DNA from: Actinomyces sp. 432 | Lineage (GTDB): Bacteria; Actinomycetota; Actinomycetes; Actinomycetales; Actinomycetaceae | NCBI RefSeq assembly: GCF_009930875.1 | Contig: NZ_CP025249.1 | Location: 2,480,001-2,544,000, forward strand | Length of the DNA stretch: 64,000 bases | Direction of reading: 5' to 3' | In this document: positions 25,169 to 57,619 of the stretch, piece after piece | Layout: every line of letters begins with the position of its first letter | Position numbering within the stretch: position 1 is the stretch's first letter | Position numbers and translations under genes: made by a program | The notes under the pieces: generated by a model | The model's input: the letters and a program-made list of their open reading frames with translations, nothing else | Told to the model about the DNA's origin: nothing | Databases searched by the model: none

Positions 25169-25263
25169 ACTTCTGGGACGGTTGAGTCTCATGACTTCTG
25201 GGACGGTTGAGTCTCATGACTTCTGGGACGGTTGAGTCTCATGGGTTTTGGGACGGTTGGGAG
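25169..25263. repeat. 25-bp tandem repeats at the left end of the IS481-type element
   Basis: Three identical 25-bp units followed by a diverged fourth. The transposase stop codon falls inside the third unit, so coding and end sequences overlap. Confidence 0.85.
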
Positions 25264-28351: not shown

Positions 28352-29527
28352 TCAGTCCCACACGGTGAAGCCCCAGAGAATCGGGTCAAGGACCCGGAAC
28401 GGGGAGATCCCGCGCTCGGTCAGTTGATCCGCGTGCTGCGGGCTCTCGCCAACCGCCGACACCGCGAAGTGCCGTACCTCGGCGAGGGCACCGTTTTGCT
28501 GTGCCGAGTCGGCGGAGAGCGTCACCGAGTCATCGCCAATGCGATTGAACAGGGAGCGGACCTCCGCGTCTAGGAAGACCACATCATTCTCAAAGGCAGT
28601 CATCGCGCTATCGATGTCCTGCCGCGCGCGCAGCATCGTGTCATCCCGGTTGAAGTGGGCGGCCGGGTTTGCCAGCAGCGGTGTCAGGGCGCTGTCCGCG
28701 TCGGTCATCTTGTGCAGTGAGTCGAACTTGGAGATCGTCAGCGCAAGTCGGGCCGAGCCGGAGGACAGCTGCAGCAGCACCTTCGGCAGCACCTCCCCAG
28801 GCATGTCCCCCAGCCGGTTGCGGTCGATCTCCGGGATGATTCCCGCCAGCACCTGCCTAACGGAGTCCAGCATGAGCGGGTCGAAGAGGAACACCACCAA
28901 GTCGGCCCGGTCCATGAAGCTGAAGTGAAGCGGCTTGCCTACAACCTTCTCGATGTCCTCACCGGCCACGTCGCGCATCACGATGTAGAAGCGCTCAATG
29001 TCATTACCGCGAAACTCCCAGATCAGGGGGTCCTGCTGGTATGCGCCACCACCCGCGATGGGAGGTGTGCCCTCCATGACCACGTTCTCCTTGAACAAGG
29101 GCTTGTAGTACCGCTGCGAGTACACCTCGTAGGTGCCGGTCGTGGTGGGGGTCATGGTGCATCCCCGGGACTGCGCGTAGCGCCTGAGCAGGTCCACGGC
29201 CACCGCGATGTAGACGGACTTGCCCGAGCCCCGCGCCCCGACCAGCGTCATGGTGAATACCCGCGCATCCTCCCATCCCGGCGGCAGATCCCGGTGGCAT
29301 ACGCTGCAGATCCGCTGCCGGCACGGCTGCCCGCACCGCCGGCACGGGACTGTGGTACGCACCGGCTCGTCCTCATTTTGAACGATGCGGTAGAAGGGAG
29401 TAGTTCTGGTTTCGTATCCGGCCAGAGCGGTGCCCTGCGGATCCGGGACGGGCTGGCACTGCCCCGTGCACCGCACGGTGATCTCTCCGCCGGGAATGGC
29501 GGAGTAGCAGTAAGGACAGGTACTCAT
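28352..29527 (-). CDS. Zinc-ribbon double-GTPase-like protein (DO-GTPase2 type)
   Basis: A 391-aa cytosolic GTPase. It starts MSTCPYCYSAIPGGEITVRC, a zinc ribbon, with a second Cys cluster CRRCGQPCRQRICSVC at 62-77. The P-loop GARGSGKS is at 97-104, a G3-like DVAGED at 186-191 and a G4-like SKFD at 266-269. This layout matches actinobacterial proteins assigned to the Double-GTPase 2 family, reported in NTP-dependent conflict systems. The ATG at 29527 is chosen because it overlaps the stop of the upstream vWA gene as ATGA; an in-frame start 15 codons earlier lies inside that gene. It is probably the NTP switch of the operon. A single GTPase domain is visible; the doubled architecture was not verified. 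Confidence 0.75.
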   Translation of the reverse strand: MSTCPYCYSAIPGGEITVRCTGQCQPVPDPQGTALAGYETRTTPFYRIVQNEDEPVRTTVPCRRCGQPCRQRICSVCHRDLPPGWEDARVFTMTLVGARGSGKSVYIAVAVDLLRRYAQSRGCTMTPTTTGTYEVYSQRYYKPLFKENVVMEGTPPIAGGGAYQQDPLIWEFRGNDIERFYIVMRDVAGEDIEKVVGKPLHFSFMDRADLVVFLFDPLMLDSVRQVLAGIIPEIDRNRLGDMPGEVLPKVLLQLSSGSARLALTISKFDSLHKMTDADSALTPLLANPAAHFNRDDTMLRARQDIDSAMTAFENDVVFLDAEVRSLFNRIGDDSVTLSADSAQQNGALAEVRHFAVSAVGESPQHADQLTERGISPFRVLDPILWGFTVWD

Positions 29528-30420
29528 ACGTTTTCTCCGTTTCCGTGGTGTCCAGCGGGTGTCGACAGCCAAGTGAGCAAAGGTGCAAGAAGCTCCAGCG
29601 TGCGCGGCCCGAAACCGAGGTCCTCACGCATCAGCTCCGCCCACGCCGCACCATCCAGCGCGAGGGCTTCCGGGGCGGGGAGCACGCTGAGTACCTCCGT
29701 CGGCCCAGCCAGGAGCACGTCGGAGCGTGCCGGCTCAGGAGGCAGGTCGGTGACTACCGCCACCCGCGCGCCGGCGTCGTCGTCCGGAGCGGCCACCTGC
29801 CCGACGCCGTGGCTCTCCGCGCCCCCTACCGAGACCCGACGCACCGTCGGCGCCGGGACTCCGACGGTCCCGTACAGGTCGTCGAGGAACCGTAGCAGGG
29901 CATCCACCCGGTCCTGGTACTGCTGCATCGAGGCGGATGTATCGATCACCAGGGAGGTGACGCTCGGATGGAGCCTGTGCCCCTGCTCCTCCCAGCGCCG
30001 GGCGCACCATCCCCCCAGGCCGAGGGTGACCGTGCCGCCCTCGCCCGGTCGAACCGTGATGGTGCTGCCAGCTCGCGTCACCGAAAGCACCGCCACGACG
30101 GACCGTCCTGAAACCGGCACGGAGCGCAACAGGTAGGACTGTCCGCCGACGACGCCGATGGCGAGGTCCACCGTGTAGTCCCCGGGGAAGGGATCACCCG
30201 AGGCGGTCATGACACGCACTGTGGTGGGCGCGTCCTCCGCAACCGCCTGTGCGGGGAAGGCCACGGCTCCGCGTGCCGCCCCGAGGTACTTCGGGGCCCG
30301 GGTTGTGCCGACGACCTCAATCTGGGCGGGCACGGAGCGTGATACGAGGTTCAGCTCGACTGCGCCCTTGACCGCCAGCGCGAGCTCTTCCCACTGACCG
30401 TGGTCCAGGATGTCTGACAC
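29524..30420 (-). CDS. Cytosolic vWA-domain protein
   Basis: A 298-aa protein without a signal peptide. Residues 1-150 are a beta-rich region of unknown type. A von Willebrand A domain starts near residue 152 with SLVIDTSASMQQY, whose Asp160, Ser162 and Ser164 form the metal-dependent adhesion site. The GTG at 30420 is chosen because AAAGGAAG lies about 7 nt upstream. Longer in-frame starts run back into the preceding gene. It overlaps the double-GTPase gene by 4 nt, so the two are probably made in fixed ratio. vWA proteins commonly pair with GTPases or AAA ATPases as scaffolds in bacterial effector complexes. Confidence 0.75.
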   Translation of the reverse strand: MSDILDHGQWEELALAVKGAVELNLVSRSVPAQIEVVGTTRAPKYLGAARGAVAFPAQAVAEDAPTTVRVMTASGDPFPGDYTVDLAIGVVGGQSYLLRSVPVSGRSVVAVLSVTRAGSTITVRPGEGGTVTLGLGGWCARRWEEQGHRLHPSVTSLVIDTSASMQQYQDRVDALLRFLDDLYGTVGVPAPTVRRVSVGGAESHGVGQVAAPDDDAGARVAVVTDLPPEPARSDVLLAGPTEVLSVLPAPEALALDGAAWAELMREDLGFGPRTLELLAPLLTWLSTPAGHHGNGENV

Positions 30421-30446
30421 GAGGCTTCCTTTCGTAATTCCGCCGT

Positions 30447-31058
30447 TCAGCGGCTGCCGAAGAATTTGGATCGGATGTTGAAGCGGCTCGACTCCCCGAA
30501 CACGTTCTTCGCGAGCCAACGCTCCGCACCCGGGGCGTCGTACAGCGCTTGTCCCAGTTTGCGGATGGCCTGCTGCCGCCTGTTCTCATCGAGCATTCCG
30601 ACCCAGGCGCGCACGGCCGCCAGTGCGACGTCGTCGCGATCCGTCAGCTCGGGTGCCGAGCGCTCCTGCACGAAGTCGAATTCATCTAGCACCGCGTCGC
30701 TCCATGCACGCAGGTCCTCATGCACACGCCCCTCCCGCTCCCGCAGGAACAGCTTTGCCGCCAGGCGGCGTGCGGTGTTCCCCAGCGCGTAAGGCGGCTG
30801 CGGCGACAGGCTGTAGGGATTCCGCTCCACCCACTCGGCCAGCGTCTGCAAGGACCTGGACCAGTTCACTCCGTGCGGGAGCTGCGGGACGGATACCCCG
30901 GCCCACATGGCAATGACCAGCGCCGCCAGCGCCTTGTTCGTGGCCTCCGTAATCGGCAGGCGCGGAATGTCGACTCCGGGTCGGCCGCTGCGGATCTGCG
31001 CTATCCCTTTCAGGACGTTCACGGCCATATTCGCCACCTCGGTGGGCGGGGCGCTCAT
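30447..31058 (-). CDS. Unknown mostly helical protein of the GTPase operon
   Basis: A 203-aa soluble protein I do not recognise. It begins MSAPPTEVANMAVNVLKGIA. It appears mostly helical, with TNKALAALVIAMWAGVSV near residue 40 (too polar around it for a clear TM helix), LGNTARRLAAKLFLREREG, and a basic C-terminus ending RSKFFGSR. The ATG at 31058 overlaps the stop of the GAP1-like gene as ATGA, and the next gene starts 26 nt later, so it is tightly embedded in the operon. It is probably a structural or adaptor subunit (inference from position only). Confidence 0.65.
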   Translation of the reverse strand: MSAPPTEVANMAVNVLKGIAQIRSGRPGVDIPRLPITEATNKALAALVIAMWAGVSVPQLPHGVNWSRSLQTLAEWVERNPYSLSPQPPYALGNTARRLAAKLFLREREGRVHEDLRAWSDAVLDEFDFVQERSAPELTDRDDVALAAVRAWVGMLDENRRQQAIRKLGQALYDAPGAERWLAKNVFGESSRFNIRSKFFGSR

Positions 31059-33180
31059 GAGCGGAGTCGAGTGAAAGACCACTGCTGTGCTAACCGCCTG
31101 CTGCCATGATGCGCATCTGACCGGCCCTGCCCCAGGCGGTGCTCGGAAAGACCGATAGAACCGAGGTGCCTGCGCGCGAACTCCACGGCGGCGGGCTCAC
31201 CGGGATTCCGCATTAGGCAGGGCCCGGCAATCCGCCACCACCCGGGGAGGGACTCGGGAAGAGCCAGTGCCTGTCCCGCCGTGAGGTGCTCGGCGAGTGT
31301 GTTGAGTGCGTACTCGGGCAGCTGCGGACCGCCGGGCAGCCCCTGCAGCGCCTGTGCCAGGCCGACGGCGTTGCTCCTGTCCGGCTCGGCTTGCAGTCTC
31401 GCCAGCGCCGTCTCCAGGCGGACCTGTCGCAGAGTCCCCAGCTCTAGGCCGGGGACCAGCCAGGCCAACGCCGCCGGTGGCGCGGCCGGCAGCGTTCGCG
31501 CGGTGCCGTAGGCGTGCCGGTCGCGCAGCAGGTCATCCACCAGTATCGCCAGCTGCTTGCGCGTATCCGCGCACAGGTCCAGGGACAGCATCGCGGTGTG
31601 GCCGGGATCGGACTCGTTGAGCAGTGCGCCCGCCGCCGCCCCCAGCAGAGCGGGTGCCGTGGACTCGGGCAGGGTGAGGCCGTCTCGTACCAGTGAGTCC
31701 ACCGCCTGCGCGCCTGCGGCCGGGCTGGCGGGGCGCCGTTGCTCGGCCGCGGTCGTGTATGCGGTGGTGAACGCGGCCGCCACTAGCGCCTGATTCGCCG
31801 GCATCGCGCTCCAGTCCCGGAGCAGCTGCGTGGCGTCCTCGCGGCCGGGCCGTTCAGCGGCCAGCCAGCGCGGGTTCCGGGAGGCGGTATCCAGGTACTT
31901 CCTGACCAGTCCGCCCGCGACGCCGTCGACCGGCGAGCCTGCCGGAACCGCCGAGAGCTTGTCATACCAGGACTCGGGATCATCCTGCGTCGATCCCAGC
32001 ACCCGGTCATTGACAATGGCAGTCAGGTACGCGCTGGTCGCCAGCGCGCGGGGCTGGCAGGCAACCAGTTCTCGTTCCACCAGCGAGACGAAGTCCGTAT
32101 CCGGCGTGGCCGAGAGCAGGTTCGGCTCGCAGGCCTCCGCCATCGCCAGTGGCCACGCCGGGCTGATATCCCGGTGATCCGAGAGCACTGACAGGACGTC
32201 ACGCAGCGCCTCGGTGGCAGCAACCCATGCCCCCAGGTCATTCGCGCCGGCCCGTACCAGCCGCCCCCAGGCGCCGGTCGGCGGCGGCTGGTGCGCCTGC
32301 GCCGGGTCGATCACCACTACGTTGGACCGGCTGAGGCTCCCGCCGAGCACATCGCTGCGCGGCACGAAGGCCAGCCCAATACCCTGCTGCGCCAGCCCCT
32401 CGGCGTCGCCGACACCCGCAATGCGCTCCAGGGTCGACACGCCCAGACGGCGAAAAGTCGCGCCGGCACAGGTGCGGGCCAGTGCAGCAGCCCACAGCGC
32501 CGCTTCATCGGTGGAGTCGCAGGCCACCACCACTAGCCGCCGCGTTTGTGGCGGCACCGGCCCGAGCATGGGCTCAAGGGCATCGGCTATGGCGGCCAGG
32601 ACCGGCCCTCTGTCGCCGGCGGCGATGAAGTCGGCGACGGCGTCGTCATCCAGGCCGCCCCGGGACAGGGAACCGGGATCGGGCAGCTGGGCCGCGCGGA
32701 CGTTCTCGGCGCCGAAAGGAGCAACCCACCAGTCTGAACGCCACAGATCGGGCGCGGTCAGCGCGGGAGCAGCCTCTTCCCGTACCCGCAGCAGGTGGGT
32801 GAAGCTGTTCGGCCTGCCAGTAGTGTCGAGCCCGGCGGGGCAGTATGGATGAAGACAGTGTCACGCCCCACTGGTACCTGCGCGAGCCGGCGCTCGGCGC
32901 CCGCGATCTCCTCCGCTGTAGGGAAGGACGGCAGCGACCGGGCCGGGGAGAGCACCGGCTCGATCAGGCGGCTGAGCGACTGCGCCTCCTCCTCATCCAG
33001 GTCCCCGGATGCAGCCATGATCTGCCAGCCAGAGAACGTCCGGCCGTCGACTACGCGGTCGACATTCGTGTAGAGCAGCTGGGAGGACGTCGGCGCCGCG
33101 CTCGCGCCAGGCGGGATAGACGGCGGCAGCGCGTCTGCCCGGTAGGGGCGGGAACCTGTGTCCTGACTTCGAGGCGACAT
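31055..33180 (-). CDS. GTPase-associated protein 1 (GAP1)-like (one apparent frameshift)
   Basis: About 708 aa once one base is restored near 32840, where GCCCCGCCGGGCTC needs one more C. The frame then runs from TVFIHTAPPG into LDTTGRPNSFTHLLRVREEA. The N-terminus QLLYTNVDRVVDGRTFSGWQ, with FTHLLRV, resembles the N-terminal domain of GAP1 proteins that accompany double-GTPases. A P-loop-free middle region begins RRLVVVACDSTDEAALWAAA and a long helical C-terminal half follows. It starts 4 nt after the beta-sandwich gene and overlaps the next gene by ATGA. Probable role: partner or effector-coupling subunit of the GTPase. Family assignment is from sequence memory. Confidence 0.6.
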
Positions 33181-33184
33181 CCGC

Positions 33185-35475
33185 TCACCGCTCCTTGCGC
33201 AGATTCGCTAGCTCAGGGTCAATCAGCGCGTAGTGCTCAAGCGAGCGGGGGGAAGCCTCTTCGTCCGCCCGTACGGAGGCGGCGGCCGGGGAGTCGACCA
33301 GCAGCCTGAAGTACCCGGGTTGCCGCGTTGCGTGATCGAACCACAAGGACATGATGGACCCATCCGGTGGAATGAGCACTGAGCTGTGGGCCTGCTGCCC
33401 CCCATCCTTGGTGGGGCGCTCCAGGAAGAACTTCACCTTAGTGCCGTCCGCCGGATTAAGCGGCAAGTGATCGGTATTGTGCACCAGGACGACGCCGACC
33501 GCGTCCGGCTGTGCCCGCACGCCGTGCACCGGGGCGATCTGCAGCTCCACCAGCGTCTGTCCGAAGGCCACCGCAGCCCGGCGCAGCAGCCCGCTCGCGA
33601 TGCGCCCTTCCCCCGGCCAATGCAGGCTGTACTTGTATACCCATTGCGAGGGCACCTCTACGGTCACCGGCAGCGAGGTGATCTGCTGGCCCGACAAGTA
33701 GGTCAGAGAGTTCAGGTGAATAGTCCCCCCGGATGCCGGCAGCATCCCCTCGCTCAGCACGCACCCGCCGGCTGCCCGGTAGTCGTCGTGGCTGACATCG
33801 AGCAGCGGCGCCGCAGCGGGGTCGAAGGCCTCGCCGGGGGCGGTGAACCGAATCTGCACCGAGGCGGCATCCCCGGCCAGGTGAAAGTCACCAGGTCCCA
33901 GGTAAGACGCCGGGTGAGCACCGCGTTGTGGATCTTGCCCGCGCGCTTGCACACGATGGGCTTGCCGATAGTGGCCTGCCCATCGGAGTGCTGCGTAACC
34001 GGGGTGAGGTACAGCGCGTCCCACTGGTCGCCCTCCGGCCAGCGCACCAAGTCAAGCTGGTAGCGCTTGTGCGTGGGGTCATCGCTGTCGCTGATGGCGG
34101 CCAGGCGAGTATTCAGCCGCGCCTCCTCGGGCAGGCCCGCCGTGGCCAGCTGGCTGAGGGGAATGACTTCCAACGCGCTCGCCTGCGCCGAGACCGGTTC
34201 CCGGGTTCGGTAGATCTCGGTTTTGGCCAGCGGGTGCTGCGTCCAGGTCAGCGACAGCGTCAGCCCCGTGCCGTCGGCGTCGGGCACCTGCACCGCCTGC
34301 AAGTCCTCAATCGCCTCTACCGTGATTTCCGGAACGATCCGCCGAGGAATCGGTCTTGAGGTGTAGGTCTGGCCCTCGACGACGACCTCTACGGCAGCCA
34401 CATAGGTGTAGGGGACGCCGCCCACGATCTGCGCGTCCTGAAACCCCTGGCCGTTGTTAGGCAGTGCGAAGCTCATCCACGACGAGCTGCGCAGGTGCGG
34501 TCCCGGCGGCTCGTCCTGGGGCAGGCGGGCCGTGAGCACGGTCAGCGAGGCACCGGGCGGGGCTTTGGGCGGCACCCAAGTACCAACGACGGCGCGCGCC
34601 TCCGCATCGAACTCCACCGTCCAGTCCGCCAGGTCGTGGATGACCACCCCACTGGCCACGCGCCTAGGCTGCCCCAGCACGCCGGCCTCAGCGCCGGCCT
34701 CATAGCCCCATACGGTCACGAACCGGACTGCCGTCGTAGCCGGGGAGTCGTCACGCGCAGTGGTGCCGGTGGTAACCGCGACTTCCTGGAAGTCATCGGG
34801 GTTATAGGGCATGGCGGTGTCCGAGACGACCACGCGGTAGGTCTCCCCCTCACCGGGATCCGGCCAGGTGTAGCGCAGGCCACCGCCCACGCGCTGCCAT
34901 GACACCGGGATGTGCGCACCCTCCTGGTCCGCAGCATCCAGGTCCATGCGCTCATAGGTGTAGTCGGGAAAGGCGACGTCCAGCTCGGGTTCCGCCGCGG
35001 CGCCGACGGCGGGCTGGGCCGCCGTCGGCGCCGCGGGGCCACCCACCGACTCACCCGCGGACTCGTCCACGGGCCGACCGGGTGAGCCCGCGGGCTCGCC
35101 CTCCCCCGCCTGGTAGCTCGGCTCCGGCACCGATGGTGGGCGGGCCGCGTCCTCGATGACCGCTTCATCCGCATTTTCATTCGCACCGCCCACCGGTGCC
35201 TGCGCCGGGGCGGAAGCGCCTGTTGCCGGTCCGAAGGTGCTGTTGAGCATCTCGGCTACCGGAACCGCTACGGACTCGTACAGGTCATCACGTCCCTCGA
35301 GCAGTTCCTCGGTGATGACTTCCGGATCAAACACCGTGGCGCCGCCCACCTCGCGGCCGGTCAGCATCAGCCGCCTCCACATCGACGGGCGTAGCACCTC
35401 CTTGGCCTGCGCTCCGGTTTCACAGCCGATCCACTGCGTCATTGCCTCGGTGAATTCACGGAAGTTGAGCGACAT
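33185..35475 (-). CDS. Multi-domain beta-sandwich (fn3-like) protein (one apparent frameshift)
   Basis: About 763 aa after restoring one G near 33877. There the frame of VTFTWPG passes into DAASVQIRFTAPGEAFDPAA. N-terminal residues 1-105 (MSLNFREFTEAMTQWIGCET) are a distinct small domain. Residues of about 110-195 are a disordered linker rich in Ala, Gly, Pro and Glu. The remainder is a series of fibronectin III-like or Ig-like beta-sandwiches, seen as repeated W/Y-rich strands (GLRYTWPDPGEGETYRVVV, LTLSLTWTQHPLAKTEIYR, DLVTFTWPG). It has no signal peptide or TM helix, so it is a large cytosolic scaffold or binding protein of the operon (inference). Confidence 0.65.
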
Positions 35476-35578
35476 TGTTAATCCTTATTGCGGGAATTCG
35501 GGAATGGGGACTTGCTGTGTTGCGGGAAGGGATGGCGTGGAAGATCGCTTCGCCTCCGACTGACCGGTACGCGACGCG

Positions 35579-38341
35579 TCAGTACTCGAGCGGACCGAAC
35601 GGGGGCTGCGGGATAGCAGGCGGGGCGTCATCCGGGCCGCCGGAGTCCGCCGCGGCAAAATCTGCGTGGGCAGCCGCGGCTGTCCGGCCAGTTGCGGCGC
35701 TCCTGTCCGCCCTGTCATAGACGGGCTCGTCCAGCCGGAAGCTGTTCCCGGAGTCGGCTGCCTGCGGGAAGACGAACTCCCCCGAGGGGATCGGATCCGT
35801 GGATGCGGCCAGCACCATGGTCTGGCTCAGCCCCCTGGTGGACTCGGTGAACCAGTGGTTGGCCAGACTGGTCAGTGCCCGCCCGGTGGCGTGCGCCGCC
35901 GGGCTCAGCACCTGTGAAATCACTGGCCGGGAGGCAGGCGTGGACAGGTCCTCCCGGTATGCCGCTACTGCGCGGCGCTCGCCGTCGGAGGTGATGACGG
36001 CCAGGTCAAGCCGCGGACCCGTGGAGTCCGCGAGCAGTCCCAGACAGGTGCGCCACTTGTCCAGGCCCGCGCTGGAGCGCACTCCGGCGTGTAGGACGCC
36101 CTGCTCCCAGTTGGCCAGCGCGGATCCCGCATGCCCCGGTTCGTTGAGCAGGTTCAAGTGCCCGGCGTTGTAGGCACTGCGCTGCTCCGGGGTCAGGTCA
36201 TCGGCGACCGCCGCCTCGAATGCGTCCCAGGCCTCGGACAGCCAGCCAACAGTGAATACCTGTCGGCGCAGCTCAGCAGCCACGTCCGCCGCGTGCCGCT
36301 GGTCGACCTCGACCGTGACGTGCTGGAGCGGCTCCGGCGGGACTCCGCGGGAATCGTGGGTAGGGGCGGTCGCCTGCTGCTCGCCGAGCGGATCAGCGAG
36401 GAACTCGGTGATGATCGCCGCCCACCGGTTGAATTGTGCGTAGGCCTCGCCGATCGCCGACAGGTCCTCGATCGCCATGCGCAGATTGGCCTCCAGCTCA
36501 GGCAGCTGCGCGCTTCGCGACTCGGTGAGGAAGATCAGGCGGAACACCTCTCTCTGCCGCACAGCGAAGATCCACACCGATGCCAGCAGCCAGATCAACA
36601 GCGCGCCGCCGACCGTGATACCCAGCGCGAACCAGCTCATCCGGCCCAGGACGGTCAGCACCAGTGGCACCCCGACGGCAATCCCCAGCACCAGCAGCAG
36701 GAGACGAAGAATCTTCGCCAGGGACCTCTGCTCGTGCTCGATCTCCTGCCCGAAGTCCTGCGCCCGAAGCTCATCGAGCCTGGCCTGCGTGTCCCGGATA
36801 TCGGCCCTGGCCGCCTCCCAGTGCCGGGCGATCGCCCGGCCGATCAGCGGTACGAAACGCCTGCTGTTCCGGGTGTGCCAGCTCTCAATCCGCCGCAGGT
36901 ACTCCTGGGCGGTTGCGGCGCGCGGACCGTTTTCCGCAGCCGCCTTCTGCAGCACCCGGCGAACACGCTGCGTCTCCAGCTCGTCCCAGGCGTGGAGCAC
37001 GGTGTCGGCGGGCAGGGGGTCGATGGCCTGCGGCAGGCGCAGGCTGCCCTCGTCCTCACCCGAGGGCGCCACCAAGTCACGCTCGGGCACGTATCCCTCG
37101 TATGCCGTGAGCCGCAGCTCCTCGCACCCGGACCCGTCCAGCAGCGCGCGCGAGCCGCTGATCAGGTCCTGCCACAGCCCGCCGAAGTCCCGTGCCGCCG
37201 GCTGTGGTGCCCGCGGGAACTCCTCGGGGATGGATGCGCTCGCCTGCGCCGCCAGGCGGGACAGCTCCTGCCAGCTGGCCGGCTGTCCGGAGGCATCCAC
37301 CCCGCCGACGACGACGCGGACGGGTGAGTCGGGCCCGAACACGGCCGCCGAAACCGACCCGGCGATGCCGGCCTTGATCCCGGCGATCTGCTTGCGCAGC
37401 CAGTCCCCGGGGGCGCCCGCAAGCGCTTTGAGCAGGAACGCGAAGAACATCTTCAGGAGCTTCCACGCTCCCATGGAGCGCGGCGGCGACGCATCCGCCA
37501 ACCGGGCGGGTGGGCGGCGCAGGTGCTTGCCGTGGCGCCGCTCCCAGTCTGCGGCCGCCTGCACCACGCGCTCCCCGGGATCGGGGAAGCCCGCGACCGG
37601 CACACCGGTGTCGGAGCGGATCGGCTGCGGGTAGTGCGCGGCTATGGACGTCACCTGGGACCGCAGCGCGTCTTCGACCGCGCGCGCATCGGCAACCCGC
37701 ACAAAGGTGCGGGTGATCTTCACGTAGTCGGACGTGGATGGGCGCTGGTCGTCCTCGGGCGCCGCGCTCACCGTGCCGGTGATGCCACCCTGTACGGCGA
37801 GCCCAACCGCGGCGCAACCGGGAATCGCCTCCGGCGTCAGCCACCAGCCGGACACGGTAAAGGCCGGGTCGGCCGATACCTCGGGAGAAAGCATTACGTT
37901 GTGCCAGCCCTGGTGCCCGAGCTCCCCGGGGATGGGCGCGTCCGACCAGGGCACCAGGACGCGCACGCATTCACGCCGGGCCTGCCCGGGTATGCCCAGC
38001 CCCTGGAAGTGAAGCTCCGCGAGGGCTGAAAGAGCATCACGCGCCTCGTGCCCGACGGGCACCACGACGATCAGCCGCACGACTTCAACCGCATGGCGAT
38101 TCACCGCGCGCGAGAAGCGCAGCGCGGACACCTGGCCCTGGTTGACCGCGAGCGTCAGCGGGTCCTGCTGGGCGGGATCCGCTGACGGATCGGGCCCAGA
38201 CTCGATCCAGTGGAAGGGAGACAGCAACCCGGCGGCAGACAGGTCCGTCAATGCCGCCAGCACTGGGCGCTGGCTCCGGGGAGCGATGTAGATGGTTACC
38301 GCCTTGCCGGGCGCCTGGTCCGCAACAGATGAGATGGCCAT
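35579..38341 (-). CDS. Large two-TM protein of the tubulin-like operon
   Basis: A 920-aa protein of unknown function. Residues 1-300 are soluble and begin MAISSVADQAPGKAVTIYIA. A helical, charge-rich region (about 450-545, with LRRIESWHTRNSRRF and QARLDELRAQDFGQEIEHEQ) may be a coiled coil. Two hydrophobic helices follow at about 545-565 and 568-594, then a soluble 325-residue C-terminal part. Both large parts are therefore probably on the same, cytosolic, side of the membrane. It lies 2 nt after the tubulin-like gene and about 100 nt before the beta-sandwich gene. It could tether the complex to the membrane (inference). Confidence 0.65.
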   Translation of the reverse strand: MAISSVADQAPGKAVTIYIAPRSQRPVLAALTDLSAAGLLSPFHWIESGPDPSADPAQQDPLTLAVNQGQVSALRFSRAVNRHAVEVVRLIVVVPVGHEARDALSALAELHFQGLGIPGQARRECVRVLVPWSDAPIPGELGHQGWHNVMLSPEVSADPAFTVSGWWLTPEAIPGCAAVGLAVQGGITGTVSAAPEDDQRPSTSDYVKITRTFVRVADARAVEDALRSQVTSIAAHYPQPIRSDTGVPVAGFPDPGERVVQAAADWERRHGKHLRRPPARLADASPPRSMGAWKLLKMFFAFLLKALAGAPGDWLRKQIAGIKAGIAGSVSAAVFGPDSPVRVVVGGVDASGQPASWQELSRLAAQASASIPEEFPRAPQPAARDFGGLWQDLISGSRALLDGSGCEELRLTAYEGYVPERDLVAPSGEDEGSLRLPQAIDPLPADTVLHAWDELETQRVRRVLQKAAAENGPRAATAQEYLRRIESWHTRNSRRFVPLIGRAIARHWEAARADIRDTQARLDELRAQDFGQEIEHEQRSLAKILRLLLLVLGIAVGVPLVLTVLGRMSWFALGITVGGALLIWLLASVWIFAVRQREVFRLIFLTESRSAQLPELEANLRMAIEDLSAIGEAYAQFNRWAAIITEFLADPLGEQQATAPTHDSRGVPPEPLQHVTVEVDQRHAADVAAELRRQVFTVGWLSEAWDAFEAAVADDLTPEQRSAYNAGHLNLLNEPGHAGSALANWEQGVLHAGVRSSAGLDKWRTCLGLLADSTGPRLDLAVITSDGERRAVAAYREDLSTPASRPVISQVLSPAAHATGRALTSLANHWFTESTRGLSQTMVLAASTDPIPSGEFVFPQAADSGNSFRLDEPVYDRADRSAATGRTAAAAHADFAAADSGGPDDAPPAIPQPPFGPLEY

Positions 38342-38343
38342 GC

Positions 38344-41300
38344 TCAGTACTCCAGCCCGCCCGTCTCGGCTGCCGCGCCAGGGGCGAATCCAGCCGGATC
38401 CACCCGCGCCAGGTCATCGCGAACCGCTATCAGCTCCTCGCTCATCTCCCACGCCAGGTCCACGCTCAGGGGCGTAGTCGCCACCAGCTCGCGGCGGTGG
38501 TAGTTGGTCCAGTGCCCCGGTGCGTCTGCCTTGCCCTGCCCGGGAAGGTAGTTCTGATCAAGATCCGCCAAGATCGCATCGCAGTACGCCAGCAAGCGCT
38601 CCCTGCGCTCCTCGGCGTTGCGCGCATCCGCCAGGTCCACTCCCGGGGTGAGGTCGTCAACGGCCCCCCGGCCGAGTAATTCGGCAAGCATGCTCTGCAC
38701 GGGGGTGTCCCTGCCGAAGGCCTCCTGGTGCTGGTTGGCGCCGTCGTCGGCCCAGCGGCGCAGCACGCTCCAGGGCCGGAACACCTCCAGGCCTTCCCGG
38801 CCTATCCGCAGGTACGCGAGCAAGGTGGCCTCCAGGATCGCGGGCAGCCAGGCGTTCGGGGCGATCATCCGGGAGGGCGGAGTCAGCATGGGTGCGGGGA
38901 AGGCGACCCATTCGCCCTCGGCGCGGTCCCATACGCGCACCGGGTGGTTGTCGGTGGCGGAGCGCCACGGCTCCCGGTCGATCCCTCCGGCGAGGGTGGC
39001 GGCCCACCAGCCACGGATGATGGCACGGCGCTCATCATCACCCATCGGCAGGCCCCCGGGCAGCGGGCGCGCCCGCCGGAACTGCCAGAAGGCGCTACGG
39101 CCGCCGTCCGATCCGGATACGGTGTCCCACCTGTCCGCCACGGACTTCAGCAGTCCCGAGTAGGCCACCGGCAGTGTGCGCGGGTAGGAGCCGAAGATGT
39201 CCACCCGCGCCACGTCGTCGTCTGCGAGGCGCTTGCGCACGTTGTCCACCACCAGGTCCGTGGCGAAGGACGTGTTGTGCCGGAGGTAGTCGAGGAACTC
39301 GTCAGCGACTTGGTGGTTAAGGAAGGGAATCGCGGAGAAGGTGAAGGACAACTGCGGCACCTGCCCGTCGTGCAGCCGGGCGTAGACCTGCGGATCGATC
39401 TCCACCAGCGGGCGCGCCATCTCCAACGTCCGCTTCAGGCCCGTCAGGACGGCGGCAGAGCGCTCGGCGCGCTCGTGCTCCCCTACCGAGTCATCGTTGA
39501 GATAGCCGCGCAGGGACTGCGAGGTGAACTGCTCGAAGGCCTCACCACGACGGGCCACGAATGCCCGCGCCCGGTCAAGCAGCACCGACGGCTGCAGCCG
39601 AACCGTGGCACGCGCCGGGTTGGGCACCTCCCCTGAGCCGCGATTTGCAGGCCCCGGGGCACCCAGCCGGACACGCTCAGGAGATTATCCGGGGCGGGGT
39701 CGCCGGCCCCCTGCGCCCAGCGTCCGGTAACCACGGCCCTGACCACCGACGTATAGGGGTTATCACTGTCATCCGGGGCGGCATCGCGCACATGCTCGGA
39801 GAAGTATGCGGGGTAGTCGCGCACGTCCATGAGCACGACCTCGTTGTGCGCCGTGGCGAATCTGGCAGGCACCGCGGCCACCTGCCCCTCTCCGGGGGAG
39901 CCTCCTCGGGCCAGGCGGCGTACAGGTCCGTGGACACGTCAGCGACACCGAAGGCGCTGTGGCGGTCATTGCGTGCGGACTCCAGCACCCGCCGGGCATC
40001 GTTGAGCGCGTTCGCCAACGGAGCCACCACTGAATCAGCCATATCCCGCAGCGCGGGCGCAAGGTCCACCGCCGTGGTGCAGCCCACCCACTGTGCGAGC
40101 CGCTTGACCAGCTGAGTGCGCAGCTGGTTCATGATCTCCTGCTGCGCCTGCGACGACAGGGTTCCCTTGTGACCCATGGTCGCCAGCTGCTGGGACAGCT
40201 CCCGGGGCAGGGCCAGCGGCTGGTTCGGGCGCTGCGTCACCGCACCCGCAAGGCGCTCCGCCAGGCCCGGCAGCTCGCCGCCCGGCCGCCGCAGCCGACC
40301 CAGTACCGTCAGGGCGTAGGGGATGCCGTACTCGGAGATGTTGAGCCTAATCGTGTCGGTGAGCCTGCCGGCGATCTCCTCCGCGCGGGCCCGGGCCATG
40401 TCGCGTGCAATCGTCTCAAGCTGCGCGGTAACCGCCGGGGCCTGGCCCCGCAGCCAGTCGCTCAGCGCGTTCTGCAGCGCCGCGGCCGTGACCCCGTCGC
40501 CGAGCGCGATCTGCCGGGCGAACAGCCCGTCCACGACGTCCCGCATCCGCGCCACAATCGTGTCGTTGTTGACCACCCTGCTGGCCTGTGCGGATGCGAG
40601 CCACAGCAGTGCCTCCTGGTCCGCCGCGCCCGACACGCCGACTACGTTCGTGCCCGACGTCGTCGGCAGACCGATCCGCTCCAGCTCCAGGTCCCGGTTA
40701 GTGCTCCACAGGTCGTTGAGCGCCTGTGTGTCGCCGATGTTCACGCCCGGGCGCCGGAATCCGTCCAGCACGTGGTCCACGCACCGCCTGGCAATCCGCT
40801 GCGCGGCGTACTCGGCGTAGCGGTCCCGCCCCGTGCTCAGGGAGGCATAGCCGAAGGAGCTCCAGGCCGTGTCGGTAGCGTCCACCCCCCAGCTGACGTA
40901 CTCCTTGTCGGAGACGCTGACGCCGTTCCCCATGTCATAGGAGACGTAGTCATTGAAGGCCGGGGAGGCGATGTAGCGCGCCAGCCCGCGTCCCATGCCA
41001 TGGAACACGGCCTTTGCCGACCCGTCCCCGAACACCGCCCCCGTACCGCCGGCCTTGATTCCGATGGGGGTTACCCGCTTGAAGGCGCGGCCCGCGCGAT
41101 TGGTAATCCCGAAGCAGGCGTACAGCTCCTCGTCAAGGCGGGCGGCCCGCCCCTCCGCCCCCGCCTGGGCGGCGACAATCTCTCCGAGCATGGCCAGGGT
41201 GTTGCCGGGCATCCCGGTGCGCTTGTCAGGCGAAACCGACCCGAAGGCCTCGGCGGTGTACAGGAACACCGAGATCAGCTGCGGGTCAATCGGCGGGGTC

Positions 41301-41929
41301 GACTGGACGCCGGCAACCAGACGGCACACGTCCAGCGCCATTGAGGCCCCCGACCCTCCGGCCATTGAGGAAATGACGAGCACCATGGGCGGCGCCAGAG
41401 GCTCCGGGGGATTCCCCGCACCCGGTACCTTGCCACAGACGCGCGCGGCCTGCTCCTGCACCTCCGGACCGGCCATTCGCGCCAGGGAGGCCTGCACCGC
41501 ACGCGATACCTCGTCCAGTTTCGTGAGCACAAGCAGGCGGCCGATGCCGCGATACTGCCCCGCGCCAACAGACACTGGAAATGTTACATCCCTGGGGCGA
41601 CGCGGCATCCACGTCGCAAGGTGGCGCAACCCGGCCGTGCTGTTCTGCTGCACCCGGCCCGTCAGCGCCCGGTCAACCACGGAATAGTCGCCGTTAGCGA
41701 TACCGCAGCCCACATACGCACCGCCCTGCTGCGTCACGGTTCGCACGGCGTCCGGGTCCTGGGGGTCCACCGGCTCCTCCTGTAGGGGCGTGTCCACGCT
41801 CAAGAACTGCCAGCACTCGGGTATCTCCCCGATGCCGTGTACGGCGAGGTCGGCCCGGATCTGATCCATCATGTACGCCAGTGTCTTAGCGCCCGAGCCA
41901 CCGCAACCGATGACTAGAACCTTATGCAT
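38344..41929 (-). CDS. Tubulin/FtsZ-like GTPase (Tubulin_2 type, two apparent frameshifts)
   Basis: About 1195 aa. The N-terminal 380 residues form a tubulin-like domain: a glycine-rich phosphate-binding start VLVIGCGGSGAKTLAYMM (residues 5-22) and the tubulin-type signature SSMAGGSGAS at 187-196. A long helical C-terminal region follows. The frame breaks twice in G4 runs that need five G: near 39887 (PPERG into QVAAVPARFATAHNEVV) and near 39633 (IAAQG into EVPNPARATVRLQPSVLL). Without these the gene would appear as two or three proteins. The family resembles long tubulin-like proteins found beside vWA and GTPase genes in actinobacteria. It may polymerise or act as a GTP-dependent switch. Confidence 0.75.
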
Positions 41930-42039
41930 TTCCGTGTAGTCCTTTCCGCCCGCGATCTCACCGGGGGGCGCCCTGGGGGTACGGGTGGCCCGCCAAGGGC
42001 CAAGTTATCGCGCGCGCCATATCGGTGCGCGGTATGTCA
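41930..42039. other. Spacer between the membrane vWA gene and the tubulin-like gene
   Basis: 110 bp within the operon, with a 6-bp hairpin (TGGCCC / GGGCCA near 41986-42002). It may carry an internal promoter, but none can be placed. Confidence 0.4.
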
Positions 42040-44748
42040 CTATCCGAACGGGGATGAGTCCTCGGCGGGAGCGGAGCCCCCTAGAGGCGCCGAGTCACCG
42101 AAGGGATTGGCCCCATCCGGGCCCGGGTCTGCGGCGCCCGCATCTGCCCCCAGCCCGGCGCCCGCATCCTGGGCCACGGCCGGGCGGGACGAACTCGCGA
42201 CCGAGGCGACCGCCGTCCCCAGGTGCTCTCTGGCGTCGGCCACCACCTTCTCGATCGCCTCCGGGGCCGCCGAGGCGAGCAGTACCAGCAGCGTTACGTG
42301 CTTGGGCGAGTCCGGCTGATCAAGGATCGCGACCCAGTTCCCGCGCACCGCCAGCGGCAGCACGGCGTGGCCGTCTCGAGCGCCGCCGGCCGCGCCGGAT
42401 ACGGACGGGGCCGCGGCGTCGGCCAGGATCACGTAGGGCGGCGCGGTGGGGGACATCCCCGCCACTGCCCGCAGGCGGTAGCCCGCAAGCGAGTACTCGC
42501 GCTGCCGCCGGGGCAGGGAGTGCATCGTCAGGTCCTCGGGGCCGAAGTCGATGGAGCCGACGCCGCCGGCCTGCGGAACCTCGACCACCTTCGTCCCGGC
42601 GATCAGTGTTCCCGCGGGGATTCGTGCCGACAGCGACTTGAACAGGTAGAGCAGCGCCAGGGGAATGCCGATGCCCGCGACCAGGGCGATGGCGAAGGTG
42701 CTCCACGTGGTGGCGACGTTGAGCGGCCGGCGCATCTCCGCGGTCATGGGGACCTCGATGACCTGCACCCGGTCGGGTTCGTCCAGCGGCGAGACCGAGA
42801 CCTTGACGGTACCCGTCACGGCACCGTTGGCCTGACCGCCGACGCTCAGCGTGAGCGGGAGCGATGCCTTGACGCCGTCAGCCGCGCTTACGCACTGCTC
42901 GGGCGTGGAGGCCGCGGCGCTCACCGTGATGTCGCCGGCCCCCTGGGGGGCGCCCGTGAGCTTAAGCGAATCCGCGCCCACCCAGACGCATCCGGGACCG
43001 GTGACATCCAGCTCGGCCGTCGCGGTCGTCTCCTTCTCGAGTCTTCCAAAGTCGATCGTGGCACCCAGCTCGGGGAAGTTCGACGGCGGGTTCACGGTCA
43101 CCGGGACCGAGCTGGTGGTCGGGTCCAGCTGCGTGCCCGGAACCGTCTTTCCGCCGTCGGTCGCATCCGCGGTCGTCACCGTCACTGAGGTCGTAACCGC
43201 TCCCGTGCCCACGGCGACGTCCTCGCCGATTGCGAGCTCCACCGGCTGCTCGATGTCGCCCAGGTCGTCCGAGTCCAGCAGCGTGTGCTCCTCCCCCGCG
43301 GCATCCGTCAGCGTCACGGAGTAGGAGACCGAGCCGGTGAACTTGTCAGCCCGCACTACATCGCCGTCGACACGGGACAGCAGCACGATGGTCGCCTCCA
43401 CGCTCTCTCCCTGGCGCAGCGTGGTGGTCTCCAGGTCCTTCCAGCTCAGCGTGAGCGGTGACGTCAGGTGCAGGTTCACATGCACCTGCTTGTCCTCGGA
43501 CTGCGCCCGCGTGTCGACGAAGGCGATCCGCCACTGCCCGTCCCAGGCCTTGGAGGTGGCCGCGTCAAGGTCGATCTCCAGTGTGCGCCGAGTGCGCCAC
43601 TGGTAGCTGATGCCGTCGGCGGGCTGTGCGTCGCCCGCCTGCGCCGACAGGATCATCGGCGCAGACGCCCCCGGCGGGTACAGGTATGCGTCCAGGTCAT
43701 CCACGTCCGTTGTGGCCAGCACGTGCACCGTGTCCACCGACTTGTCCAGGACGAAGGACAGCTCGCCGTCGGCGCAGACCTGCCCCTGGCAGATCTCGAC
43801 CGAGGACGAGCGGACCGTGTCCCCAGGGGTCCCGATCGCGTCGAATGCGAGCAGGAGCTGGTCTATGCCGCCCGCCGTGTAGAAGGCGCCCGGCGGGGAG
43901 GACAGGGCCCCGCATGACTCAAGCCCGGCAGAAGCGGCGTTATCTCCGCCGGCGAGCGTCACCCGGCGCATCAGCGTCAGGTCGGTGTCTCCTGCCTCCA
44001 GCCCAATTCCCAGGAGCACCACGCCCGAGCCGCGGAGCTGATCGGCGAGCCCGGTGTCGCGGCAGATGTCCGCAACACCTGCGGCCTCTGCCCGTGCCAC
44101 GCCGGACTCCTCGTCCAGCGATACGCCCGGCGCATAGGGCTTCTCACTGCCGATGGCGTCACGGACCGCGCGCGTGTCCCGCACGTCCAGGTCGAAGGCG
44201 CCGTCGGAGAACCAGGCGATCGCACGGCAGCCCGACTCGTCATGATCCACGAGGTCCTGCCGGGCCCCCTCCAGCGCAGTCCAGTAGTCGGTGTCGTAGT
44301 CCCGGATGTCTGAGCCAATCGCCTCGACCGACTGCTTGACAGCCGCGACGTTGTCCGGGGAGATCCCGGTCCACTCGCCTACAGGTGCGTAGGAGTCGGA
44401 GAATCCGGCGACGCGGACATCCACCACCGCACCGCTGCGTTCCGAGAAGTCGGCGAGGCGCTCGGCGAGATAGCTCGCGGCCTGTACCCGGGTGCCCTCC
44501 GGGTCGGTTTCGCGCAGTGACCCCGACTGGTCCAGGAGCAGCAGCAGGGACCCGCTTCCCCGCCCGACGAGGCAGGCTCCGAAGTCATCCATGCCAGAGC
44601 GCGGCGGCGTGGCCGGCTCCTCGTCGGCGGCCGCCCGCGGCGGAGCTGCCAGCAGCGTCAGGCCGAGGCAGACGGCTCCCACCAGCGCGATCAGGCAGCG
44701 CAGGATCCCCCTGCGGCGCAGCTCGGGCCGTACCGTGCTCCCTGCCAT
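42040..44748 (-). CDS. Membrane-anchored extracellular vWA protein with cytosolic tail
   Basis: A 902-aa type I membrane protein. A Sec-type signal peptide (GILRCLIALVGAVCLGLTLL, cleavage near AAA/DEE) is followed by a vWA domain with the metal site LLLDQSGSLRE near residue 70 and SDGAFDLDVRD. Further on come Ig-like beta domains (such as GSVSYSVTLTDAAGEEHTLL). One TM helix lies at about 681-703 (TFAIALVAGIGIPLALLYLF), then a 199-residue cytosolic tail ending in repeated (D/G)-P-F-G motifs (GANPFGDSAP, EDSSPFG). The ATG at 44748 is used; a GTG two codons earlier overlaps the upstream stop as GTGA. The architecture suggests a sensor linking the surface to the cytosolic GTPase and tubulin-like proteins (inference). 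Confidence 0.75.
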   Translation of the reverse strand: MAGSTVRPELRRRGILRCLIALVGAVCLGLTLLAAPPRAAADEEPATPPRSGMDDFGACLVGRGSGSLLLLLDQSGSLRETDPEGTRVQAASYLAERLADFSERSGAVVDVRVAGFSDSYAPVGEWTGISPDNVAAVKQSVEAIGSDIRDYDTDYWTALEGARQDLVDHDESGCRAIAWFSDGAFDLDVRDTRAVRDAIGSEKPYAPGVSLDEESGVARAEAAGVADICRDTGLADQLRGSGVVLLGIGLEAGDTDLTLMRRVTLAGGDNAASAGLESCGALSSPPGAFYTAGGIDQLLLAFDAIGTPGDTVRSSSVEICQGQVCADGELSFVLDKSVDTVHVLATTDVDDLDAYLYPPGASAPMILSAQAGDAQPADGISYQWRTRRTLEIDLDAATSKAWDGQWRIAFVDTRAQSEDKQVHVNLHLTSPLTLSWKDLETTTLRQGESVEATIVLLSRVDGDVVRADKFTGSVSYSVTLTDAAGEEHTLLDSDDLGDIEQPVELAIGEDVAVGTGAVTTSVTVTTADATDGGKTVPGTQLDPTTSSVPVTVNPPSNFPELGATIDFGRLEKETTATAELDVTGPGCVWVGADSLKLTGAPQGAGDITVSAAASTPEQCVSAADGVKASLPLTLSVGGQANGAVTGTVKVSVSPLDEPDRVQVIEVPMTAEMRRPLNVATTWSTFAIALVAGIGIPLALLYLFKSLSARIPAGTLIAGTKVVEVPQAGGVGSIDFGPEDLTMHSLPRRQREYSLAGYRLRAVAGMSPTAPPYVILADAAAPSVSGAAGGARDGHAVLPLAVRGNWVAILDQPDSPKHVTLLVLLASAAPEAIEKVVADAREHLGTAVASVASSSRPAVAQDAGAGLGADAGAADPGPDGANPFGDSAPLGGSAPAEDSSPFG

Positions 44749-44750
44749 GC

Positions 44751-45245
44751 TCACAGCCTCCCCACGTACAGGGCGATCCGCACAGCCGCCGCGACGACGG
44801 CGACGACGGCAAGCACCACGCTGAACCGGTGGAACATGACAGCGCGCTTCTTGTAGAGGTACCACGGGTTCGCCTGCCGCTGGGCGTCCTTGACCACGAA
44901 GAGCGTTGCGAGTCCCAGGCCGACCAGCGCGGCGAGCGCCCACGCAACTGCGGCGACGGCGATCTGCTCGAACAGGATAGCGAGCACGAGTCCCAGCGTA
45001 GACGCGGCCAGGGATCCGGCGAGTAGCCCCACCGGCGCACTGGTCGTGGCGTACCCGGCCGTAGTCTCCGCCGCCCGGCCTGCAAACGCGCTAGCCGAGC
45101 CCTCGCCCCCGCCCTCAAGCGGGGCTTGCGCATCGAATACACCGTGCGGCTGCGGGTCCTGATCGGCCCCCGGAGCCGAGGAGGGCGTCTTGGCCTGACT
45201 GTCCCACGCCCCCAGCGCGGGTGAGTCCGATCTTGGCGACGTCAT
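44751..45245 (-). CDS. Small three-TM membrane protein
   Basis: A 164-aa protein with a disordered N-terminal 68 residues. Three hydrophobic segments follow: about 71-94 (PVGLLAGSLAASTLGLVLAI), 96-118 (AVAAVAWALAALVGLGLATL) and 138-160 (FSVVLAVVAVVAAAVRIALY). The last two are separated by a basic loop (KDAQRQANPWYLYKKRAVMF). Its stop overlaps the GTG of the membrane vWA gene, so the two proteins may act together in the membrane. Function unknown. Confidence 0.7.
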   Translation of the reverse strand: MTSPRSDSPALGAWDSQAKTPSSAPGADQDPQPHGVFDAQAPLEGGGEGSASAFAGRAAETTAGYATTSAPVGLLAGSLAASTLGLVLAILFEQIAVAAVAWALAALVGLGLATLFVVKDAQRQANPWYLYKKRAVMFHRFSVVLAVVAVVAAAVRIALYVGRL

Positions 45246-46397: not shown

Positions 46398-46438
46398 GAG
46401 TTGGCCCCGGCGAGCGGAGTGCTCGCCGGGGCCAACTC
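46398..46438 (-). terminator. Hairpin terminator after rpoC
   Basis: A perfect 18-bp inverted repeat (46398-46415 with 46421-46438) with a 5-nt loop, about 50 nt past the rpoC stop. It should isolate the downstream accessory operon from rpoBC transcription. Confidence 0.85.
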
Positions 46439-46488
46439 ACAAGCGGCAACGGTGCGGCGGCTGCCCGCCGCCCGTCAGCTTCGGGGTG

Positions 46489-50456
<3,968 letters not shown>

Positions 50457-57446: not shown

Positions 57447-57480
57447 GAGCTCCCCTTTCTCATCACCGCTGCTGCGTTCA

Positions 57481-57515: not shown

Positions 57516-57619
57516 ATGTCGGCCGTCGCCGCGTGCCGCCTCCCGAGCACGGCGGCGACACCCGGATAACGAATTGGGTCGACCATACCGCGCCCAGGGC
57601 GCCCGAGCCACCCACGCCC

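What the first reader, a model, noticed from the sequence alone, without database searches (positions are those of the whole stretch)
28352..45245. Operon joining a tubulin-like GTPase, a double-GTPase, GAP1-like, two vWA proteins and beta-sandwich and membrane subunits
Nine genes lie on one strand and most are coupled by ATGA overlaps or gaps under 30 nt. Seen directly: a tubulin signature (GGSGAS), a P-loop GTPase with zinc ribbons, two vWA metal sites (one cytosolic, one outside a membrane anchor with a 199-aa cytosolic tail), fn3-like domains and a two-TM 920-aa protein. Double-GTPase and GAP1 families are known from predicted NTP-dependent conflict systems. The combination with a tubulin-like protein and a surface vWA receptor suggests an envelope-sensing, GTP-switched, perhaps polymerising complex, for defence or for envelope or cell-contact responses. 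No toxin or nuclease was recognised, so the effector mechanism is unknown.
Basis: partly seen in the sequence, partly recalled or inferred. Interest (0 to 1): 0.85.

Follow-up and report, generated by a model that had tools for sequence, protein, structure and literature searches.

The report
Tubulin double-GTPase operon with matching tails
This is an actinobacterial example of a predicted bacterial conflict system already described in 2020, built around a tubulin-like protein and GTP switches; new here is that the tubulin and its membrane partner often end in matching short peptides, like the shared tail of animal tubulin and one of its partners, which points to a common docking partner that can now be looked for.

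Summary
The window (a 3.14 Mb genome, very probably Actinomyces) holds eight genes, three broken by five frame changes: a small membrane protein, a surface vWA receptor, a ~1190-aa tubulin, a 920-aa two-TM protein (P920), an FNIII-like protein, GAP1, a cytosolic vWA protein and a double-GTPase. Relatives carry them unbroken; the core order is recognised in 75 of 95 sequence sets. The combination is not new: Kaur et al. 2020 describe this actinobacterial GAP1-N2/DO-GTPase system, and Makarova & Koonin 2010 its tubulin (FtsZl1) with vWA and GTPase neighbours. Our searches listed no experimental work on it.

New here: (1) tubulin and P920 of one operon end in matching C-terminal peptides that change between lineages (LEY/LEY, DDTF/DETF, REFL/REFL; 13 lineages, z 7.7, 0 of 10,000 shuffles; vWA-TM, FNIII, GAP1 flat, DO-GTPase weak); (2) the receptor tail is a [DNS]P[FW] repeat; (3) vWA-tubulin-P920 occurs without GAP1 or DO-GTPase in four genomes read; (4) a model puts a tubulin-like second domain in the "uncharacterised" C-terminal half. 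Likely mechanism: a receptor-gated tubulin scaffold on the membrane, tubulin and P920 docked through one reader, DO-GTPase/GAP1 as switch. Trigger and output remain unknown.

The parts
44751..45245 (-). TM164: small membrane protein, first gene of the operon
   Evidence: tblastn (E up to 1) finds relatives just upstream of the vWA-TM gene in many of the 95 sets, weaker with distance (listing cut)
42040..44748 (-). vWA-TM receptor, 902 aa from the likely ATG: signal peptide, vWA with DQSGS site, beta-rich part, one TM, cytosolic part ending in a disordered-looking tail with [DNS]P[FW]
   Evidence: VWA_2 28.5 bits; two hydrophobic segments; start; tail motif
38344..41929 (-). Tubulin-like protein (FtsZl1/Tubulin_2), two ORFs of one gene (39677-41929 and 38344-39627) broken near 39885 and 39625; C-terminus LEY
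   Evidence: PF13809 E 4.4e-43; intact 1190-aa relative in G030; end; model of the A. bovis relative
35579..38341 (-). P920: alpha/beta N-terminal domain, helical stalk, two TMs, low-confidence tail ending LEY
   Evidence: No Pfam hit; model pLDDT 79, pTM 0.71; recognised in 93 of 95 sets
33185..35475 (-). FNIII-like protein, two ORFs of one gene broken near 33860
   Evidence: weak fn3 in relative L056 (E 0.055); place in the operon as in Kaur et al.
30447..33180 (-). GAP1 (N2-M-C), three ORFs of one gene broken near 32835 and 31120
   Evidence: GAP1-N2 27.6 bits, GAP1-M 17.4 bits (under cut-off) in the pieces; both over cut-off in L048 and L056
29524..30519 (-). Cytosolic vWA protein with N-terminal beta domain (ORF; the true start probably lies inside)
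   Evidence: DTSAS site by eye; VWA_2 E 0.094; orthologues in 19 sets by profile; an ORF of like size between GAP1 and DO-GTPase in 11 of 12 loci printed, DxSxS by eye in 10 of these 11 (L111 and G056 are one genome)
28352..29527 (-). DO-GTPase2 with zinc-ribbon cysteines; GARGSGKS, RDVAGED and SKFD motifs intact
   Evidence: PF19993 E 4.1e-4; invariant motif columns in 27 rows; ATG in the ATGA overlap

Best explanation
The locus is an actinobacterial tubulin-type GAP1-N2/DO-GTPase system (shown by sequence and synteny). Proposed mechanism: the vWA-TM protein senses a ligand outside the membrane (inferred). Inside, the FtsZl1 tubulin assembles into a GTP-dependent scaffold at the membrane (fold predicted, assembly inferred). 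The [DNS]P[FW] tail of the receptor adds a second, multivalent contact. DO-GTPase with GAP1, the FNIII-like protein and the cytosolic vWA protein form a separable switch (inferred). The output is probably made at the membrane through the P920 two-TM stalk, since no toxin domain was recognised in the operon. The patchy distribution fits a conflict or stress role better than housekeeping.
For: Identity; order in 75 of 95 sets. Matching tails: last 4 residues of tubulin and P920 score 166 against -2.4 +- 21.8 for shuffled pairs over 13 lineages (tubulin identity under 45%), 0 of 10,000; tubulin or P920 against vWA-TM, FNIII and GAP1 show no excess; against DO-GTPase z is 2.1 (tubulin) and 1.2 (P920) in 8 lineages where tubulin/P920 has 4.6; the match is confined to about the last 6-10 residues; in 16 loci 20 of 54 identical residues use a different codon, so not gene conversion; last residue F/Y/W in 40 of 47 tubulins and 42 of 47 P920s but 5 of 45 vWA-TM, 3 of 45 FNIII, 4 of 44 GAP1, 4 of 23 DO-GTPase. 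Receptor tail: [DNS]P[FW] 210 seen against 12.7 +- 3.4 expected, in 69 of 82. Separable switch: G132, G160, G048, G047, G313 and G368 give no hit for the DO-GTPase profile or GAP1-N2, six of six carriers do. Tubulin fold. Patchiness: 12 carriers among 29 same-genus genomes need 10 changes on an RpoB tree, no fewer than shuffled labels.
Against: No experiment. In the 9 divergent large-genome loci (my label: Streptomyces-type) 7 had a next gene to compare and only L129 and L133 give a hint of a match. Over all 88 loci the last residue is identical in 68, the last two in 23, the last four in 3; mycobacteria mostly share only the final F. Lineages are related, so shuffles overstate significance somewhat. 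P920 is near-universal only in loci fetched with this tubulin: class-wide its profile matches 8 of 394 genomes (two of them barely), against 28 with Tubulin_2 and 50 with GAP1-N2. The acids that I place by eye at a T7-like position are kept in Actinomyces but not across the family, so GTP turnover in filaments is doubtful. Profile comparison with FtsZ supports only the first loop. A conserved gene order also suits an ordinary envelope function.
Confidence: 0.4

Rival explanations
1. Membrane remodelling machine (Makarova & Koonin): the FtsZl1 tubulin, vWA proteins and GTPase shape membranes or move envelope material, without any conflict role.
For: Paper text; conserved order across genera; no effector domain recognised in the operon by Pfam or PADLOC.
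Against: No tubulin match in 25 of 36 other same-genus genomes (two of the 25 are under 90% complete) and many changes of state, unlike a basic envelope machine; a canonical FtsZ gene lies elsewhere, so division is unlikely.
Confidence: 0.3
2. Abortive anti-phage system in which P920 is the effector: tubulin assembly clusters its two-TM stalks and permeabilises the membrane, as predicted for the SLATT two-TM effectors of other GAP1-N2 systems.
For: Kaur et al. place two-TM SLATT effectors in GAP1-N2 systems; P920 has two predicted TMs in 49 of 78 relatives, three in 25; a TIR gene beside one divergent relative; variable rpoC-rpsL site.
Against: No significant structural match for P920 (best Foldseek E 0.084, prob 0.15, to an alpha-pore-forming toxin subunit); head and stalk look more like an anchor. 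TIR seen in one locus only.
Confidence: 0.25
3. The matching tails are not docking signals but a shared processing or degradation signal, or a by-product of ribosome-binding sequence at the gene ends.
For: Some tails read through GGAG at the DNA level (window tubulin end CTG GAG TAC, directly before the stop and the next start).
Against: P920 ends 103 nt before the next gene in the window yet carries the tail; tails such as REFL, TGIL and DDTF are not of that kind; FNIII and GAP1 ends show nothing; a general protease signal would not change by lineage in step.
Confidence: 0.12

Closest known systems
Actinobacterial tubulin-type GAP1-N2/DO-GTPase system (Kaur et al. 2020, eLife, PMC7159879; passages seen)
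   Same: Single tubulin with extra C-terminal region, GAP1-N2, DO-GTPase with zinc ribbons, FNIII-like protein, membrane-bound vWA protein in one neighbourhood
   Different: The passages seen do not mention P920, a cytosolic vWA protein in the actinobacterial tubulin form, matching C-terminal tails, the [DNS]P[FW] tail, or the GTPase-free three-gene form; HRDC was not detected here
FtsZ-like 1 (FtsZl1) operons (Makarova & Koonin 2010, PMC2875224; parts 1-2 of 5 and passages seen)
   Same: Tubulin with long coiled-coil and helical C-terminal part, next to vWA, GTPase and membrane proteins
   Different: They found no similarity of the C-terminal part to known FtsZ/tubulin domains; the model here aligns residues up to 943 and 1040 with CetZ and tubulin. 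OmpA-domain genes lie near the window's system but also in genomes without it
Eukaryotic shared -EEY tail of alpha-tubulin and EB1 read by CAP-Gly proteins (PMC3303835, start of abstract seen in a listing)
   Same: A tubulin and a partner end in the same short C-terminal peptide with a terminal aromatic residue
   Different: Analogy only; no CAP-Gly domain was reported in the Pfam scans, tails vary by lineage, the partner is a membrane protein

Membership tests
GAP1-N2 DO-GTPase system, tubulin theme (Kaur et al. 2020) | GAP1 with N2 and M domains | tested here: met
   GAP1-N2 27.6 bits over cut-off 24 in the window; GAP1-M under cut-off in the window but over it in L048 and L056
GAP1-N2 DO-GTPase system, tubulin theme (Kaur et al. 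2020) | DO-GTPase with N-terminal zinc ribbons and Walker B glutamate | tested here: met
   PF19993 E 4.1e-4 (under cut-off) in the window, 28.3 bits in L056; invariant GAR..GK, RD..GED, KFD columns; cysteines by eye
GAP1-N2 DO-GTPase system, tubulin theme (Kaur et al. 2020) | Tubulin with extra C-terminal domain in the same neighbourhood | tested here: met
   PF13809 E 4.4e-43; ~1190 aa in relatives
GAP1-N2 DO-GTPase system, tubulin theme (Kaur et al. 2020) | FNIII-repeat protein fused to HRDC | tested here: inconclusive
   Only a weak fn3 hit (E 0.055) in L056; no HRDC hit reported
GAP1-N2 DO-GTPase system, tubulin theme (Kaur et al. 2020) | Membrane-bound vWA protein | tested here: met
GAP1-N2 DO-GTPase system, tubulin theme (Kaur et al. 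2020) | Role in biological conflict | not testable with these tools
   Predicted in the paper; only indirect support here
FtsZl1 family | FtsZ-like GTP-binding loops, coiled coil, C-terminal helical part, vWA neighbour | tested here: met
   GG[SA]GAS and GAGQ.R each in 80 of 80 named relatives; long helices within 477-648 in the model; vWA-TM adjacent
FtsZl1 family | Second (C-terminal) tubulin domain | tested here: inconclusive
MoxR-vWA ternary system | MoxR AAA+ ATPase beside the vWA protein | tested here: not met
   No AAA hit in any operon ORF scanned
PADLOC defence systems | Match to a defence protein model | tested here: inconclusive
   10 ORFs scanned, not the 140-aa GAP1 piece or TM164; only a weak ZorG match in the tubulin helical part (E 9.8e-4, 17.1 bits), which I take as coiled coil

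The most novel reading that the evidence does not exclude
Bacterial FtsZl1 tubulins use a C-terminal tail code: the tubulin and its two-TM membrane partner carry one matched, lineage-specific terminal peptide that a dedicated reader in the same three-gene module recognises, a convergent counterpart of the eukaryotic -EEY code, and the DO-GTPase/GAP1 unit is a detachable switch added to this receptor-tubulin module.
Probability: 0.5. Interest if true: 0.82.

Novelty: new member of a known kind. Interest (0 to 1): 0.6.

Why it matters
FtsZl1 tubulins were reported in 2010 and placed in predicted conflict systems in 2020, yet our paper searches (titles and abstract starts seen, open-licence papers only) listed no experiment on a partner, assembly mode or function. 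A matched C-terminal peptide on tubulin and membrane partner names two partners and a binding site a few residues long, so the open question of what these tubulins do becomes a peptide pull-down. It would also be a second, independent invention of a tubulin tail code.

Tried and rejected

Rows dropped: in the tail tests I removed G-handles that duplicate named loci (G003, G006, G029, G034, G035, G056) and the near-copy G007; one search also left out the window itself and the 9 divergent loci (L128-L134, L141, L142), whose next gene is not shown to be P920 (their tails). The greedy choice of 13 lineages follows the order of the list; thresholds of 55% and 65% gave z 6.9 and 7.7 for the last four residues. 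In the RpoB tree 17 of 25 same-genus non-carriers were used.
Full report
What is there. The window lies in a 3.14 Mb single-contig genome. Between rpoC (46437-50456) and, further on, rpsL/rpsG/fusA/tuf (21720-17198) lies a one-strand gene block. The ORF list suggests more genes than there are: tblastn with the intact proteins of the nearest relative, G030, shows that several ORFs are pieces of one gene. The tubulin is two ORFs, the FNIII-like protein two, GAP1 three. The real list is eight genes: TM164, vWA-TM, tubulin, P920, FNIII-like, GAP1, cytosolic vWA, DO-GTPase. rpoC is broken too. Purifying selection is seen in the pieces on both sides of the breaks (dN/dS 0.15-0.42; RpoB 0.05). Runs of four or five G or C lie near five of the six breaks, none at rpoC (no chance control). 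Assembly errors are the likely cause, but decay of this copy is not excluded.

Synteny. From 80 named loci and 15 unnamed-genome stretches (six of these are the same genomes as named loci) I built profiles and mapped the genes. In 75 of 95 sets the order vWA-TM, tubulin, P920, FNIII, GAP1, (vWA), DO-GTPase is recognised unbroken. The other 20 include the window itself (split ORFs), G015 (complete, with extra genes), G048 (reduced form), and sets cut by contig ends or missed by my ORF choice. The cytosolic vWA gene diverges fast: the profile finds 19 sets, yet 11 of 12 loci printed have an ORF of like size in that slot (L111 and G056 are one genome). The named carriers include Mycobacterium, Mycolicibacterium, Rhodococcus, Gordonia, Williamsia, Nocardia, Arthrobacter, Corynebacterium and Propionibacteriaceae. 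TM164 has relatives just upstream of vWA-TM in many of them.

Known or not. Kaur et al. 2020 (PMC7159879; passages seen) define DO-GTPases and GAP1 and describe actinobacterial GAP1-N2 neighbourhoods with a single tubulin fused to an uncharacterised C-terminal helical domain, an FNIII protein with HRDC and a membrane-bound vWA protein. Makarova & Koonin 2010 (PMC2875224; parts 1 and 2 of 5 and passages) described the tubulin as FtsZl1 with vWA, GTPase and OmpA neighbours and proposed membrane remodelling. The locus is therefore a new member of a known kind. Paper searches listed no experimental work on it; I opened only these two papers, and the library lacks most subscription papers.

Distribution. 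11 of 36 other same-genus genomes carry the tubulin. The system lies downstream of rpoB on the same strand in 11 of 12 carriers counting the window, and about 84 kb away on the other strand in G021. On an RpoB tree of 12 carriers and 17 of the 25 non-carriers, presence and absence need 10 changes, no fewer than shuffled labels (mean 9.4; 386 of 500 as low). The rpoC-rpsL interval varies from about 0.4 kb (G031) upward; in other species it holds a MoxR/FHA/PP2C cluster (G033; like ORFs in G036) or a ZnuA zinc-uptake gene (G008). Such patchiness suits an accessory system. Class-wide, 28 of 394 genomes have Tubulin_2 and 50 of 394 GAP1-N2, while the P920 profile matches 8 of 394, two of them barely: the P920 type is one branch of the tubulin systems, or P920 diverges beyond the profile.

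Separable switch. In G048, G132, G160 and G313 the vWA-TM and tubulin genes are followed by a P920-like gene, split in two in G132 and G313 (L137, L136), with no FNIII, GAP1 or DO-GTPase gene recognised in the stretch. The P920-like protein of G160 (L135) missed the profile but matches those of L136 and L137 by blastp. Whole-genome searches with the DO-GTPase profile and GAP1-N2 were negative in these four and in G047 and G368, and positive in 6 of 6 controls; G047 is 89% complete and its contig ends inside P920, and the neighbourhood of G368 was not read. The receptor-tubulin-P920 unit can thus exist without the switch, while divergent operons of large genomes (my label Streptomyces-type; their names are not given) keep a tubulin with DO-GTPase and add a kinase gene (L131) or, in one case, a TIR gene (L129).

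Matching tails. Comparing the protein ends showed that tubulin and P920 of one operon tend to end alike. In 11 of 14 Actinomyces, the window included (its tubulin end), both end in EY; in A. urogenitalis both in VY, in G017 and G021 both in F. Corynebacterium sp. has DDTF and DETF, C. ulceribovis DGLV and EGLV, a Bifidobacteriaceae MAG EVF and EVF, G048 REFL and REFL, L136 TGIL and TGIL. Over 13 lineages with tubulin identity under 45% the last four residues score 166 against -2.4 +- 21.8 for shuffled pairs, 0 of 10,000; at 55% and 65% (21 and 30 lineages) z is 6.9 and 7.7; pairs with vWA-TM, FNIII or GAP1 show nothing. DO-GTPase pairs looked raised in a first test (9 to 50 of 5000 shuffles reach the observed value in five of six tests, 23 loci); by lineage tubulin/DO-GTPase has z 2.1 and P920/DO-GTPase 1.2 for the last four residues in 8 lineages, against 4.6 for tubulin/P920 in the same lineages; at 75% identity tubulin/DO-GTPase reaches z 3.4 with a raw score of 29 against 175. 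A weak third tail is not excluded. The tubulin-P920 match spans about the last 6-10 residues and falls to background beyond. Of 54 identical residues in 16 loci 20 use different codons; in L105 DLDDTF is written with five of six codons different. Limits: over 88 loci the last residue is identical in 68, the last two in 23; mycobacteria mostly share only the last F, and the Streptomyces-type loci give no consistent match. Both tails lie in stretches of low model confidence, as expected for docking peptides on flexible linkers.

Receptor tail. The cytosolic end of vWA-TM is rich in [DNS]P[FW]: 210 in the last 120 residues of 82 proteins against 12.7 +- 3.4 after shuffling, with at least one in 69 of 82; of the other five proteins only DO-GTPase shows an excess (15 against 5.7 +- 2.4). 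Several corynebacteria have GFG repeats instead.

P920. The model (pLDDT 79, pTM 0.71) shows an alpha/beta head, a helical stalk and two TMs; no confident structural relative. It is recognised in 93 of 95 sets and is not named in the passages I saw.

Verdict. A known kind of predicted conflict system, correctly picked out though miscounted, with an unreported regularity in its protein ends (not found in the two papers by the word searches) that makes its wiring testable. Shown: identity, synteny, separability of the three-gene unit, tail match, receptor-tail repeats. Inferred: sensing, assembly, common reader, switch role, membrane output.

Noticed in passing
window 46437-50456: rpoC changes frame near 46740, like five places in the system; points to assembly errors in this genome
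   Followed up: partly
L143 (G033) 10374-16332 and L155 (G036): The rpoC-rpsL interval holds a MoxR AAA+, RDD/FHA, PP2C and FHA gene cluster where other species hold the tubulin system (Pfam run on L143 only)
   Followed up: partly
L026 (G015) and L160 (G022) 2874-5022: A second, divergent FNIII-like and DO-GTPase pair in the same region, present in G022 which lacks the tubulin system
   Followed up: no
L135, L136, L137, L043: Receptor-tubulin-P920 genes without GAP1 or DO-GTPase; P920 split into two genes in L136 and L137
   Followed up: yes
L129:539-1813 (-): TIR-domain gene (TIR_2, 53.2 bits) beside a divergent tubulin/DO-GTPase operon
   Followed up: partly
window 55836-60991: Three OmpA-like paralogues near rplJ, two on the minus and one on the plus strand; two such matches lie near rpoB in G005, which lacks the system
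   Followed up: partly
window 25239-26552: Integrase-core transposase gene between the system and rpsL
   Followed up: no
window 10088-10858: Overlapping matches to G030 about 156 bp apart inside an ORF at 9980-11290, a likely tandem repeat
   Followed up: no
vWA-TM tails of L104-L106 and L108-L110: GFG repeats in place of [DNS]P[FW] in corynebacteria
   Followed up: no
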